Assembly: GCA_027972325.1 (NCBI GenBank)
Contig: JAPMOS010000025.1
Coordinates: 310,001-374,000 of the forward strand
Source: Paratrimastix pyriformis
Taxonomy: Eukaryota > Preaxostyla > Paratrimastigidae
Direction: 5' to 3'
DNA length: 64,000 nucleotides
Shown in pieces: positions 113 through 63,959 of this stretch; position 1 is the first letter of the stretch, and every line of letters starts with the position of its first letter. The position numbers were made by a program, and so were the translations under genes. The notes below the pieces were generated by a model that saw only the letters and a list, made by a program, of their open reading frames with translations, did no database searches and was not told the origin of the DNA.

Positions 113-3100
113 ATGTCGACTGTCGACTGCTTTGATGGCAACACGGCCGCGGCCCATGTCGCGTACGCCATGTCCGACTGCGCCGTTATTTTCCCCATCA
201 CCCCCTCGTCCGTGATGGGTGAGCTGGCCGATACCTGGTCGGCTCAGGGCCGCAAGAACATCTTCGACCAGACCCTGTCCGTTACTGAGATGCAGTCTGA
301 GGCCGGTGCCGCCGGTGCCGTCCATGGCTGCCTGTCTGCTGGTGCCCTGACCACCACCTTCACTGCCTCCCAGGGTCTCCTCCTCATGATCCCCAACATG
401 TACAAGGTCCGACAGCGTTTTTTTCCTTTCGCTTGTACTCATTTGCTTCTGTTGTTATGGGGGTCGGTTTTGCCGTTGCCTTTTCGGATGATGCCTATGT
501 GACCTGCCTCAACAGATTGCCGGTGAGCGCATTCCCGCCGTTTTCCACGTTTCGGCTCGCGCCATCGCCTCTCAGGCCCTGTCCATCTTCGGCGATCATC
601 AGGATGTCATGGCCGCCCGCGCCACTGGCTTCTCGTTCCTGTGCGCCTCCTCTGTCCAGGAGTGCATGGATCTTGCCCTTGTTGCCCACCTGTCGGCCCT
701 GAAGGGTTCCCTTCCCTTCGTTCACTTCTTCGATGGCTTCCGGACCTCCCACGAGATCCAGAAGATTTCCATCCTGTCCTACGAGCAGATCAAGTCCCTC
801 GTTGACTGGGAGGATATTAAGCGCTTCCGCGCTGGTGCTCTGAACCCTGAGCATCCTCAGATGCGTGGTACTGCCCAGCAGCCCGAGATTTACTTCCAGC
901 TGCTCGAGGCCTCCAACAACGAGTACGCCGCCCTTCCTGAGATCGTTCAGGAGCAGATGCGCCGCGTCTCTGCCGTCACTGGCCGTCAGATCCACCTGTT
1001 CGACTACGTTGGTGCCCCCGATGCCACTGAGGTCGTCATCATTATGGGTGCTGGTGCCTGCGCTGTTGAGGAGGCTGTTGAGTACCTCAACGCCCACGGC
1101 CACAAGGTTGGTGTCCTCAAGGTTCGCCTGTACCGCCCCTGGTCGGCCCGCCACTTCCTGGCCGCTCTGCCCGCCACTGCGACCAAGATCGCCGTCCTCG
1201 ACCGCACTAGTCTGTTTTCTTATTTTTCCCTTTGATCATATTGATCATGATCTCCCATTTTTCAGAGGAGCCCGGCTCTTTCGGCGAGCCTCTGTACCTT
1301 GATGTCGCCGCCACCATCCAGAACGCCCACCAGCAGCGCACTATTGTTGGCGGCCGCTTCGGTCTTGGCTCCAAGGACTTCACCGCCACTATGGCCAAGT
1401 CCGTCTTCGAGAACCTGTTCCAGGCCACTCCCAAGAACCACTTCACCGTGGGCATCAACGACGACCTGTCCCACACTTCCCTCCCCGTCTGTGTTATTTT
1501 CTTGCTCCGAGCACGCCCACTCACATGGACAAAATTCCGCTTCAAATTAGGTCACTGAGGAGATCAACGCTCTCCCTGAGGGCACCGTCCAGTGCCTGAT
1601 TTGGGGTCTTGGCTCTGATGGTACCGTCGGCGCCAACAAGGAGGCCATTAAGCTCATTGGCCACAACACCGAGCTCTTCTCCCAGGGCTACTTCGAGTAT
1701 GATGCCAAGAAGTCTGGTGGCCTGACCCGGTCTCACCTCCGCTTCGGCCCCCGCCCCATCAACGCCACCTACCTCGTCACCCACGCCGATTACGTTGCCT
1801 GCCACAACCCCGGCTACGTGGGCCGCTATGAGCTCCTCAAGGCCGCCAAGGTTGGCGCCAAGTTCCTGCTGAACTCCCCCTGGACCACCATCGAGGCTAT
1901 GGAGGCCAACCTGCCCGGCGACCTGAAGCGCGTCATTGCCCAGAAGCACATCCACCTCTACAACATCGACGCCATCGCCGTCGCCGCCCGCACCGGCAAT
2001 GGCCAGCACATCGGTATGATCATGCAGACCGCCTTCTTCAAGCTCGCCAACGTCATTCCTCTGGAGCAGGCCATTGAGCTCCTGAAGAAGTCCGTCGTGA
2101 AGATGTTCGGCAAGAAGGGCCAGCAGGTCGTCAAGGTCAACCACGATGCCATCGACCTCGCCCAGGCCGAGTGCGTCGAGCTGGCCTACCCCGCCTCCTG
2201 GGCGGACGCCGCGCTTCCTCCTCGCTTCGTCCTCCCTGGCGCCCCCGAGTTCGTCAACGAGATCATGATTCCTTGCGGCCGCTACACCTCCGACTCGCTG
2301 CCCGTCTCCACCCTGGGCCGGCTGTGCCCCGGTGGCATCATGCCCACTTCGACCGCCCGCTGGGAGAAGCGCGGCCTTGCCCCCTCGGTTCCCGCCTGGG
2401 ATCTGAACGGCAAGTGCGTCCAGTGCGCCATGTGCTCGTTCGTCTGCCCCCACGCCGTCATCCGCCCCTACCTCGTCACTGATGCCGAGGCCCAGGCCGC
2501 CCCCTACAAGGAAGGCTTCGCCGTGAAGCCCACCAAGGGCAAGGAGTTCGAGGGCTACTCGTTCCGCATCCAGGTCTCCGTCATGGACTGCACTGGCTGC
2601 GGCTCCTGCGCCAACGTGTGCCCCGTCAAGGCCCTGGAGATGAAGCCCTACCCCACCCAGGCCCGCCAGCACGAGAACTGGATGGTCCGTACCCCGCGCC
2701 GCTTCGGCCCTGGCTCGAGACTCATCCCTGGTTTCTTTTTTCCGCCCAACAGTACTGCCAGACTCTGCCCGTCCGCGACCAGCAGATCGCCACCTCTGCC
2801 GAGAAGCCCAACACCAAGGCCTCCCAGTTCCGCATGCCTTACTTCGAGTTCTCCGGCGCCTGCGGTGGCTGCGGTGAGACCCCCTACCTCAAGCTCGTTT
2901 CCCAGCTCTTCGGCGACCGCATGATCATTGCCAACGCCACCGGCTGCTCGTCCATCTACTCCGGCTCCGCCCCCTGGTCCCCCTACACCGTGAACAAGGA
3001 CGGCCACGGCCCCGCCTGGGCCAACTCCCTGTTCGAGGATAACGCCGAGTACGGCTATGGTATGTTCCTGGCCACTGCCCAGCGCCGCAAGCGCGTTGCC

Positions 3101-4108
3101 GACCTCGTCCAGAAGGCCCTTGCCATGCCCGAGCTGGCCGCCCCCGTCCGCGAGGCCCTCCAGTTCTGGTACGACCACAAGGACCAGGGTGAGGAGTCCA
3201 AGCAGGCCTCCGTCCGCGTGAAGGCCGCCCTCGAGGCCCACCACGAGGACGCCACCCTCGCCCAGATCTGGGACGCCCGCGACATGCTCACCAAGAAGTC
3301 CCAGTGGATCTATGGTGGTGATGGCTGGGCCTATGATATTGGCTTCGGTGGCCTGGACCACGTCCTGGCCTGCGGCGACGACGTCAACGTTGTTGTCATG
3401 GATACTGAGGTCTACTCGAACACCGGCGGGCAGCGCTCCAAGTCCACCAACCGCGGTGCCGTCGCCCAGTTCGCCGCCTCGGGCAAGAAGACCGCCAAGA
3501 AGGATCTCGGCTCGATCTTCATGAGCTACGGCAACATCTACGTCGCCAGCTGCGCCATTGGCTCCAACCCCGGCCAGTTCCTGAAGGCCGTCCACGAGGC
3601 CGAGTCCTACAACGGCCCCTCGATCCTCATTTGCTACTCTCCTTGTCTGTCCTCTCTCCCCCACCCTCCCACGCTTCCCTCGCGCCCATCCGCCGACCTT
3701 GTTTCTCACGGTCCCTGTGTCCTTTTCTTCTCTTCTTCAGGCATCAACCACTCCATTAAGGGCGGCATGGCCAACAGCATTGAGGAGGAGAAGCTGGCCG
3801 TCAAGTTCGGCTACTGGTACCTGTACCGCTACGACCCCCGCCTCGCCGCCCAGGGCAAGAACCCCTTCCAGCTCGACTCGAAGGAGCCCGCCGGCGACCT
3901 CAAGGAGTTCCTCTACCGCGAGGTTCGCTACGAGTCCCTGACTCGCTCCTTCCCTCAGGAGGCCGAGCGGCTGCACGCTCTCCTGGCCGAGGACAAGCGC
4001 CGCGACTACATTAAGTACCGCCAGATGGCCACCAACTGGGAGGCCCCCCAGCAGGCCCAGGCCACTGCTGCCCCCGCTGCCGCCGCCCCCGCCCCCGCTG
4101 CCCACTAA
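113..4108 (+). CDS. Pyruvate:ferredoxin oxidoreductase (PFO), six exons
   Basis: Oxidatively decarboxylates pyruvate to acetyl-CoA and CO2, passing electrons to ferredoxin; the core enzyme of anaerobic energy metabolism. Exons 113-406, 516-1209, 1266-1486, 1551-2684, 2753-3644 and 3741-4108 join in phase to 1200 residues, the usual length for a single-chain PFO with no flavodoxin/CPR fusion. Visible landmarks: the N-terminal pyruvate-binding domain from residue 1, two ferredoxin-type 4Fe-4S motifs near residues 690 ([12 protein letters not shown]) and 749 ([12 protein letters not shown]), the [11 protein letters not shown] cysteines near 818, and the TPP-binding [15 protein letters not shown] near 970. 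The protein ends in an unusual Ala/Pro/Gln-rich tail of about 20 residues. The ATG at 113 is used because the family N-terminus follows at once. No obvious organelle presequence. All five donors read GTCCG or GTCTG. Confidence 0.97.
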
Positions 4109-62969: not shown

Positions 62970-63327
62970 GCCCTGCGCGCATTCTCGGCCACCCGATCGG
63001 TGTCTCGTTTCCCAAAATTTTGTGTCACAGCAGCTTGCGGCGGCGTGTTTGGCGGCGTGGAAGAGGGGAGGGAGGGGAGGGAGGGAGGGAGGAGGAGGAC
63101 CCTGCTCCTATGGACCCTGATCGCAGGGTCCGAGGGAACGGGCGGTCAGATCCAGCTTTACGCCGGCCGAGGGCAAGGGGATGAAAAGGGAGGAAGGACA
63201 AGGACAAGGAAGAAACGAACGAACGTTCGCCAGAGAGAAAAACGGTCCGCACCCCCGGTGGGGCCAGCAGCCGGCCGGTCGGGTGGCAGGCGACCCGCCA
63301 GGGAGACCGAAAGCAGGCCGGGCGCGA
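62970..63327. other. Short intergenic region between convergent genes
   Basis: Purine-rich (GGGA/GGAG runs near 63064-63095). No gene or defined repeat is visible. Confidence 0.6.
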
Positions 63328-63959
63328 TCAGCCCACGGGGAGCTGGGCCAGCTTCTCGGCCGTGAAGCCGCGCGGCAGCAGCTGCTCCCGCTGGGCGTAG
63401 ATCTCCTTGTAGGTGGCGTGGAGGGTGCTCTCGGCGATGCCGGCCGTGTCGGCGATGTCCTTGGCCGACCGGATGGTGGGCCCGCCGTGTAGGTGCACCA
63501 CAATGTACAGCGAGGCCGCGCAGATGGCTGTGGGCAGGCGGCCCCCGAGCAGCCCCAGCTCGCAGATCTTCTGGGCCACTTCCTGGACGCTCTGCCGGAC
63601 GGACTCGGGCAGGCGGAGGGCCGAGCAGAACCGAGGCAGGTACTGCTCGGGGCCCGCCGTCTGGGAGGACAGGCCCAGGGTACGTATGACGTGCTTGTAG
63701 GCGTGGGTGACGTCCTTCCGGGGGACCCCGCTCATGGAACATACCTGCGCAGGAACCACGAGCCCGGGAGAGACAGAGGGTCATCATCATCGGCGGTGGC
63801 GCCAACGACAATGACAGCAACACATCTTCAACACCAACATCAGTACCCAACCACAAGAACGCGCCACGTCAGGTCGGACCTCCTTAAAGGTTCGTGAGAC
63901 GTGGGCCTGTCGGCAGGCGGCGAAAACTGTGGCCACAACCATGGCCTTGATGTTGCGTC
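63328..63959 (-). CDS. Transcription initiation factor TFIIB, 3' part
   Basis: General RNA polymerase II initiation factor (or archaeal-type TFB relative); the 5' exons lie beyond the right edge. Exon 63880-63959 reads RNIKAMVVATVFAACRQ and HVSRTFKE (first cyclin repeat), spliced over 63745-63879 (donor GTCCGA) to 63328-63744: SMSGVPRKDVTHAYKHVIRT, then the second cyclin repeat with LPRFCSALRLPESVRQSVQE, GRLPTAICAASLYIVV, SAKDIADTAGIAESTLHATY and KEIYAQREQLLP. These match the TFIIB core in order and spacing; Brf1 or Rrn7 paralogues are less likely because the ISKKEIGR-like and RFCSNL-like blocks are TFIIB-typical. An acceptor CAG at 63960-63962 shows that another exon precedes. Confidence 0.9.

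What the first reader, a model, noticed from the sequence alone, without database searches (positions are those of the whole stretch)
407..63879. Non-canonical 5' splice-site consensus GTCYG / GTYNG across the whole window
About 50 introns placed by protein homology and phase start GTCCG, GTCTG, GTCGG, GTTTG or GTTCG. The +3 base is a pyrimidine in nearly all and +5 is G in most, where typical eukaryotes have GTRAGT with purines at +3/+4. Examples: PFO introns at 407, 1210, 1487, 2685, 3645; aconitase at 58291, 58068, 57813, 55951; p62-like at 51647, 51366, 50760. Exceptions seen: GTGCGC (31862) and GTCTCC/GTCTCT (9490, 10681, 30561). A uniform shift predicts a compensating change in the U1 snRNA 5' end, which in canonical form pairs with GUAAGU.
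Basis: partly seen in the sequence, partly recalled or inferred. Interest (0 to 1): 0.9.

Follow-up and report, generated by a model that had tools for sequence, protein, structure and literature searches.

The report
Recoded splice sites with matching U1
In this protist the signal that marks the start of introns has changed from the usual GTRAGT to GTCYG, and the small RNA that reads that signal (U1) carries matching changes at its tip, a lock and key changed together in a contact that is almost invariant in other eukaryotes.

Summary
Confirmed, and its main prediction holds. The window lies in a 56 Mb eukaryotic assembly. Spliced alignment to solved-structure homologues, told only GT/AG, called 29 introns in 7 genes. 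Of 28 GT donors, 22 are GTCNG (background in the same genes 10.9%; p=1e-16) and none is GTRAG. A separate gene finder, started from GT alone or from GTRAGT, ended both times at G|GTCYGY. Eight U1 snRNA genes were found; all begin AUACAGACCU where the Rfam consensus has AUACUUACCU, so positions 5-6 are AG instead of UU and face C+3 and U+4. Of all 16 possible bases there, AG separates real donors from other GTs best. No U1 with a canonical 5' end was found. U6, U2 and U5 recognition motifs are canonical in the copies read. U1 now shares AUACAGA with the U6 ACAGA-box region, so both could read the same intron bases; that this drove the change is inference. METTL16-type and SNRNP27K genes and a U12-like RNA are present. 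No transcript data; species unidentified; U1 genes score below Rfam's curated cut-off (60.2 against 69.5 bits, E 3.7e-13).

The parts
407..515 (+). PFO intron 1, AAG|GTCCGA...CAG
   Evidence: spliced alignment to PFOR 6cin
1210..1265 (+). PFO intron 2, CTA|GTCTGT...CAG
   Evidence: spliced alignment; no equivalent shifted placement
1487..1550 (+). PFO intron 3, CCC|GTCTGT...TAG
   Evidence: spliced alignment
2685..2752 (+). PFO intron 4, ATG|GTCCGT...CAG
   Evidence: spliced alignment
3645..3740 (+). PFO intron 5, CTT|GTCTGT...CAG
   Evidence: placed by hand; the join reads [14 protein letters not shown] in frame; retained, it shows as a gap in the alignment
30784..30961 (+). PARG intron, CAG|GTCCGC...CAG
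   Evidence: spliced alignment to PARG 8adj; de novo model has the same donor, other acceptor
31026..31183 (+). PARG intron, AAC|GTCCGT...CAG
   Evidence: spliced alignment; de novo model has the same donor, other acceptor
31271..31382 (+). PARG intron, GAG|GTCCGC...CAG
   Evidence: spliced alignment; de novo model has the same donor, other acceptor
32069..32195 (+). PARG intron, TGG|GTCCGC...CAG
   Evidence: spliced alignment; same borders in the de novo model
55785..55951 (-). aconitase intron, CCG|GTCCGT...CAG
   Evidence: spliced alignment to aconitase 1aco
57422..57813 (-). aconitase intron, TTG|GTCTGT...CAG
   Evidence: spliced alignment
57971..58068 (-). aconitase intron, GAG|GTCGGT...CAG
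   Evidence: spliced alignment
58140..58291 (-). aconitase intron, ACT|GTCTGT...CAG
   Evidence: spliced alignment
63745..63879 (-). TFIIB intron, GAG|GTCCGA...CAG
   Evidence: spliced alignment to TFIIB 2phg

Best explanation
[quoted passage not shown] Donors are G|GU-C-Y-G-Y. The U1 5' end reads AUACAGACCU, so C9, C8, A7, G6, A5, C4 and A3 face G-1, G+1, U+2, C+3, U+4 (or a tolerated C), G+5 and U+6. The site would then be handed to an unchanged U6 ACAGAG box, which can also pair with +2 to +6. Shown: the donor consensus, the U1 gene sequences, and the fit between them. Inferred: that this U1 is transcribed and starts at the A of AUAC, that the pairing is used in splicing, and that fit to U6 helped drive the change.
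For: Donor consensus by two independent routes: homology and de novo EM from two different starting models. Eight U1 genes from the covariance search, and the same eight from a 32-nt body pattern with up to 3 mismatches. All eight begin AUACAGACC, while their upstream sequences have diverged except for a shared TCCCATAA about 60 nt upstream and AATTC just before the RNA. Folded alone, L001 forms a four-way junction with three stem-loops and a terminal stem-loop. AG ranks first of 16 variants at U1 positions 5-6 for separating donors from other GTs; mean duplex energy with 24 donors is -7.7 kcal/mol for this U1 and -3.7 for the canonical 5' end, against -3.7 and -2.7 for background GTs. U6 is ACAGAGA in 4 of 4 copies, U2 has GUAGUA in the 8 copies read, U5 loop is canonical in 7 of 7. 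Splicing out a GTCTGC and a GTCGGG intron from the SNRNP27K gene raises its Pfam match from 34.7 bits (one exon) to 85.5 bits over 2-55 of 56 positions.
Against: The U1 genes score 50.8 to 60.2 bits, below Rfam's gathering score of 69.5. That search scored 41 of 992 first-look candidates, so a canonical U1 with a very different body is not strictly excluded. C+4 is at least as common as U+4, though U1 position 5 is A, and GG at U1 5-6 fits nearly as well as AG (z 1.98 against 2.05). 6 of 28 GT donors from the aligner are not GTCNG: 4 in the poorly conserved PARG gene, 1 in aconitase (a 36-nt call, probably an alignment gap), 1 in the dihydrouridine synthase. In the naked-RNA fold the tip CAGAC is paired with GUUUG of the Sm-like stretch, which the Sm ring would cover in the particle (recalled). 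No enriched branch-point motif was found in the same introns. U1-C was not found by two searches. No RNA data.
Confidence: 0.9

Rival explanations
1. Artefact: a GC-rich genome makes GTCCG and GTCTG common, and boundary calls drift to them.
For: GC is 65% in the window; GTCNG makes up about 11% of all GT sites. An early, too permissive gene finder gave meaningless boundaries, and even the better one ends only about 60% of its introns in G.
Against: 22 of 28 against 10.9% expected; +3 purine 2 of 28 against 468 of 1105; recovered when started from GTRAGT. U1 carries the matching bases independently.
Confidence: 0.03
2. U1 has drifted and is not what selects 5' splice sites here; U6 or proteins do, as has been proposed for Entamoeba, where U1 is reported missing.
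For: Donors also fit the U6 ACAGA box at +2 to +6. Entamoeba donors are GUUUGU with no U1 identified (PMC6018208, PMC13292270, passages).
Against: Unconstrained drift would not be expected to leave the 5' end identical in all 8 copies and make it the best of 16 variants for these donors.
Confidence: 0.07
3. Two organisms are mixed in the assembly, so U1 and donors may not belong together.
For: Two different 18S matches, 1 and 3 mismatches to the pattern.
Against: The snRNA copies read are near-uniform within each family, and no canonical U1 was found. U6 and U5 genes sit on the same contig C168 as the window. Donors in genes on C441 (L034, L036) and C9 (L050) agree with the window.
Confidence: 0.03
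4. The driver is U6: donors first drifted to maximise pairing with the U6 ACAGA box, then U1 followed and came to copy that box (shared AUACAGA). This adds a cause to the best explanation and does not compete with it.
For: C+3 can pair with the G of ACAGA, U+4 with the middle A; U1 positions 1-7 equal the U6 7-mer.
Against: C+4 is as frequent as U+4. Only two substitutions separate this U1 from the consensus 5' end, so the identity may be coincidence. A METTL16-type gene is retained, whereas I had expected its absence where +4 is not A.
Confidence: 0.4

Closest known systems
Canonical U1 snRNA : GURAGU pairing
   Same: RNA fold, register of pairing, contact through the U1 5' end
   Different: U1 positions 5-6 are AG instead of UU (the two uridines are pseudouridines in well-studied U1; recalled) and donors are GTCYG
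Entamoeba GUUUGU donors
   Same: +3 and +4 pyrimidines, G+5
   Different: There U1 is reported absent (PMC6018208, PMC13292270, passages); here eight U1 genes match the donors
Second U1 of the diplonemid S. specki
   Same: A natural U1 with a changed 5' end
   Different: It is one of two U1 genes, with a C-run beside a conserved U1, and both fit the canonical donors about equally (PMC12621601, passages)
Fritillaria borealis non-GT/AG introns
   Same: Genome-wide change of 5' splice sites
   Different: Its U1 5' end is reported strictly unchanged; U2AF duplication and m6A changes are reported instead (PMC13326754, passages)
Variation of yeast donors linked to METTL16 and SNRNP27K
   Same: A lineage-wide change in donor preference
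   Different: PMC10581693 (search listing and start of abstract only; that it concerns +4 is recalled). Here METTL16-type and SNRNP27K genes are present and U1 changed

Membership tests
U1 snRNA (RF00003) | Full-length covariance-model match | tested here: met
   8 loci, model 1-166 of 166, best E 3.7e-13
U1 snRNA (RF00003) | Score above Rfam's curated gathering cut-off | tested here: not met
   60.2 bits at best, cut-off 69.5. The two changed positions cost part of this (inference). I therefore call it a divergent U1 by structure and fit, not a curated-threshold member
U1 snRNA (RF00003) | Four-way junction and terminal stem-loop | tested here: met
   Fold of L001 (z -2.95) and model alignment
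U1 snRNA (RF00003) | Single-stranded Sm site | tested here: inconclusive
   Sm-like stretch AAUGUUUGG aligns to the model's site, but in the naked-RNA fold part of it pairs with the 5' tip
U1 snRNA (RF00003) | 5' end complementary to the genome's own donors | tested here: met
   AG best of 16 variants on 24 introns
U1 snRNA (RF00003) | Canonical ACUUACC 5' end | tested here: not met
   ACAGACC in 8 of 8
U1 snRNA (RF00003) | Transcribed and in a U1 snRNP | not testable with these tools
   no RNA data
U2-type (major) introns | GT-AG borders | tested here: met
   28 of 29 aligner calls start GT; 24 of 29 are at least 45 nt long and end CAG or TAG. GT-AG was favoured by the aligner's costs
U2-type (major) introns | Canonical branch-point motif | tested here: inconclusive
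   CTRAY 2 of 22, shuffles 2.9; no clear motif
METTL16 | Methyltransf_10 domain with NPPF motif | tested here: met
   PF05971 66.6 bits over 166-272 of 299, FDFCMCNPPFF; whether it methylates U6 is untested
SNRNP27K | SNRNP27 domain | tested here: met
   PF08648 85.5 bits, 2-55 of 56, after splicing two introns
U12 snRNA (RF00007) | Covariance-model match above cut-off | tested here: not met
   44.9 bits, cut-off 53; the conserved 5' stretch with GAGUAAGGAAAA is present

The most novel reading that the evidence does not exclude
A eukaryote in which the whole major-intron system was recoded. U1 lost both of its near-universal 5' uridines and adopted the U6 ACAGA box sequence, so that U1 and U6 read the same intron bases in turn, and donors across the genome moved to GUCYG to suit both.
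Probability: 0.5. Interest if true: 0.93.

Novelty: new variant of a known kind. Interest (0 to 1): 0.87.

Why it matters
The U1 5' end is one of the most conserved RNA stretches in eukaryotes (recalled), and changing it should disturb splicing of nearly every intron-bearing gene at once. Here is a natural compensatory pair: two changed U1 bases and a matching change in donors across the sampled parts of the genome. It is a natural counterpart of the laboratory suppression experiments. If this RNA works, uridines (pseudouridines in well-studied U1; recalled) at positions 5 and 6 are not essential. It also offers a case for asking how U1 and U6 share a splice site when both carry the same reading sequence. 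In practice, gene prediction that assumes GTRAGT would misplace most donors seen here.

Tried and rejected
Rejected or without result. (1) First gene-finder training collapsed into about 1,700-1,900 short introns and was discarded; the version keeps the coding model fixed. (2) A high coding-score filter on de novo introns left 11 at threshold 10 and 2 at 15, and the script ended in an error at 20. (3) Expectation that METTL16 would be absent: not borne out. (4) My early guess that the organism is Mastigamoeba: not supported. The 18S fragment matches the eukaryotic model at normal length (model 477-1702 in 1201 nt; that the Mastigamoeba 18S is unusually long is recalled), no comparison set was available, and a U12-like RNA is present. 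TCCCATAA upstream of the snRNA genes resembles the Dictyostelium DUSE in position (about 60 nt) and its three Cs (PMC7919456, passages; the full DUSE letters are recalled); that is not an identification. (5) Search for the same U1 in other collections: 0 in viral contigs, 1 hit in a bacterium in genome contigs, taken as chance. (6) Branch-point search: CTCAT 8 of 22 against 3.1 in the homology set, 22 of 127 against 17.9 in the EM set; not convincing. (7) Rows dropped: sequences with more than 20% N (L006, L035) were left out of the gene finder (46 of 48 used). One search's position table uses the 22 GTCNG donors among the 24 introns of length 45 or more ending CAG or TAG, so its 22 of 22 at +3 and +5 is by selection; only its other positions inform. 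(8) My first join of the SNRNP27K exons (57.2 bits) had exon 1 in the wrong frame; correct it.
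Full report
Setting. The window is G000:C168:310001-374000 of a 56,060,509-base, 495-contig assembly. Window GC is 65%. No transcript data and no species name are available. The protein database could not be used, so homology rests on sequences of solved structures and on Pfam.

Check of the observation. I wrote a spliced protein-to-DNA aligner that charges one cost for every GT...AG intron, a higher cost for other borders, and knows nothing of +3 to +6. References were stretches of PFOR, aconitase, PARG, TFIIB, phosphoserine aminotransferase, a UPF1-like helicase and a tRNA-dihydrouridine synthase. 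It called 29 introns in 7 genes, of which 28 start GT: 25 are GTC, 22 GTCNG, 2 have a purine at +3, 0 are GTRAG. Among all 1105 GT sites on the sense strand of the same stretches, 120 are GTCNG, 468 have a +3 purine and 19 are GTRAG. The binomial p for GTCNG is 1.2e-16. The fifth PFO intron follows by hand; the join reads YSPCINH in frame. The 6 GT calls that are not GTCNG are 4 in PARG, which aligns poorly, 1 in aconitase (36 nt, probably an alignment gap) and 1 in the dihydrouridine synthase; the one non-GT call is also in PARG. Outside this set, two introns of the SNRNP27K gene (GTCTGC and GTCGGG) are supported by its Pfam match rising from 34.7 to 85.5 bits when they are removed.

De novo check. 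A gene finder with a fixed coding model and only GT/AG as splice knowledge, run on 336 kb (46 sequences), called 230 introns. GTCCG (31) and GTCTG (17) were the most frequent donors, against 5.7% of all GT sites for the two together (p=4e-15). With the splice models learned by iteration, a start from GT alone (337 introns) and a start from canonical GTRAGT (344) ended at the same consensus: -1 G 0.71-0.74, +3 C 0.89, +4 C 0.54 and T 0.29, +5 G 0.87-0.89, +6 C 0.46-0.48 and T 0.35-0.37; the acceptor is CAG-like, but its last base is G in only 0.59-0.61. These sets therefore contain many false introns; they show the consensus, not its exact strength.

U1. The Rfam U1 model found 8 full-length loci (50.8-60.2 bits; gathering 69.5; best E 3.7e-13), scoring 41 of 992 first-look candidates. 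A 32-nt pattern from the U1 body, allowing 3 mismatches, found the same 8 places and no others. All 8 begin AUACAGACCUUGC where the model has AUACUUACCUGG. The upstream flanks differ between copies, apart from TCCCATAA about 60 nt upstream and AATTC just before the RNA; the RNA body is nearly identical. L001 folds into a four-way junction with a terminal stem-loop; in this naked-RNA prediction the tip CAGAC pairs with GUUUG of the Sm-like stretch. No U1 with a canonical 5' end was found; one with a similar body should have scored higher in the model search (inference), but one with a very different body is not excluded.

Fit. U1 positions 3-9 (A C A G A C C) face donor positions +6 to -1. G6 pairs with C+3, C4 with G+5, A5 with U+4, A3 with U+6. 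I scored all 16 combinations at U1 positions 5-6 on the 24 introns that are at least 45 nt with CAG or TAG acceptors, against all GTs in the same genes. The genome's own AG ranks first (z 2.05), GG second (1.98), canonical UU tenth (1.20). Mean duplex energy with donors is -7.7 kcal/mol for this U1 and -3.7 for the canonical 5' end; for background GTs -3.7 and -2.7. GG being close, and C+4 being as common as U+4, show that position 5 is only weakly optimised.

Other parts of the machinery. U6 has ACAGAGA in 4 of 4 copies, U2 has GUAGUA in the 8 copies read of 10 matches, U5 loop is canonical in 7 of 7. U1 positions 1-7 (AUACAGA) are identical to seven bases around the U6 ACAGA box, so donor bases +2 to +6 could pair in turn with the same letters in both RNAs. 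A METTL16-type methyltransferase (PF05971, NPPF motif) and SNRNP27K are present, as are LUC7 matches at two places and a U12-like RNA. The donor shift here therefore is not explained by loss of METTL16 or SNRNP27K, the factors linked to donor variation in yeasts (PMC10581693, listing and start of abstract only). U1-C was not found: the two searches gave only a gene with a U1-type zinc finger and a below-cut-off WW match, which I take for WBP4/FBP21 by recalled resemblance. In an intron-rich genome this absence is weak evidence.

Interpretation. Best supported is a recoded U1-donor pairing. Shown are the donors, the U1 genes and their fit; inferred are transcription, the 5' end position and use in splicing. 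Whether fit to U6 drove the change is open.

Literature. In Entamoeba, donors are GUUUGU and U1 is reported absent (PMC6018208, PMC13292270, passages). In the tunicate F. borealis most introns break the GT/AG rule, yet the U1 5' end is reported strictly kept (PMC13326754, listing and passages). One diplonemid has a second U1 with a C-run (PMC12621601, passages). A review of donor classes and U6 (PMC11732430) names no such U1 change in the 12 of 24 passages shown. The listings of searches of the open-licence library showed no title or abstract start on a genome-wide donor change matched by U1; most listed papers were not opened and subscription papers are not covered, so prior description cannot be excluded.

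Noticed in passing
G000:C432:103343-103517 (L051): A U12-like snRNA below Rfam's cut-off (44.9 against 53 bits) with the conserved branch-site-reading stretch, suggesting a minor spliceosome.
   Followed up: partly
G000:C317:1220 and C245:114099: Two different 18S rRNA 3' regions, 1 and 3 mismatches to the pattern: perhaps a divergent copy or a second organism.
   Followed up: partly
upstream of snRNA genes, e.g. L001 about 1440: Shared TCCCATAA: in 8 of 8 U1 genes, and by script in 8 of 8 U2, 6 of 7 U5, 3 of 4 U6 and the U12-like gene (which missed one U1 copy that the alignment shows), about 60 nt before U1 and U2; it resembles the Dictyostelium DUSE in position.
   Followed up: partly
last 55 nt of homology-placed introns: No CTRAY branch-point signal although U2 is canonical; CTCAT slightly over-represented (8 of 22 against 3.1) but not in the larger set (22 of 127 against 17.9).
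   Followed up: partly
window 5340-6000: Long GAT-type trinucleotide repeat array; similar repeats seen in L049.
   Followed up: no
G000:C86:24809-24943 (L049): U1-C protein not detected by Pfam or by a human U1-C query; the only hit is a protein with a U1-type zinc finger followed by a weak WW match.
   Followed up: partly
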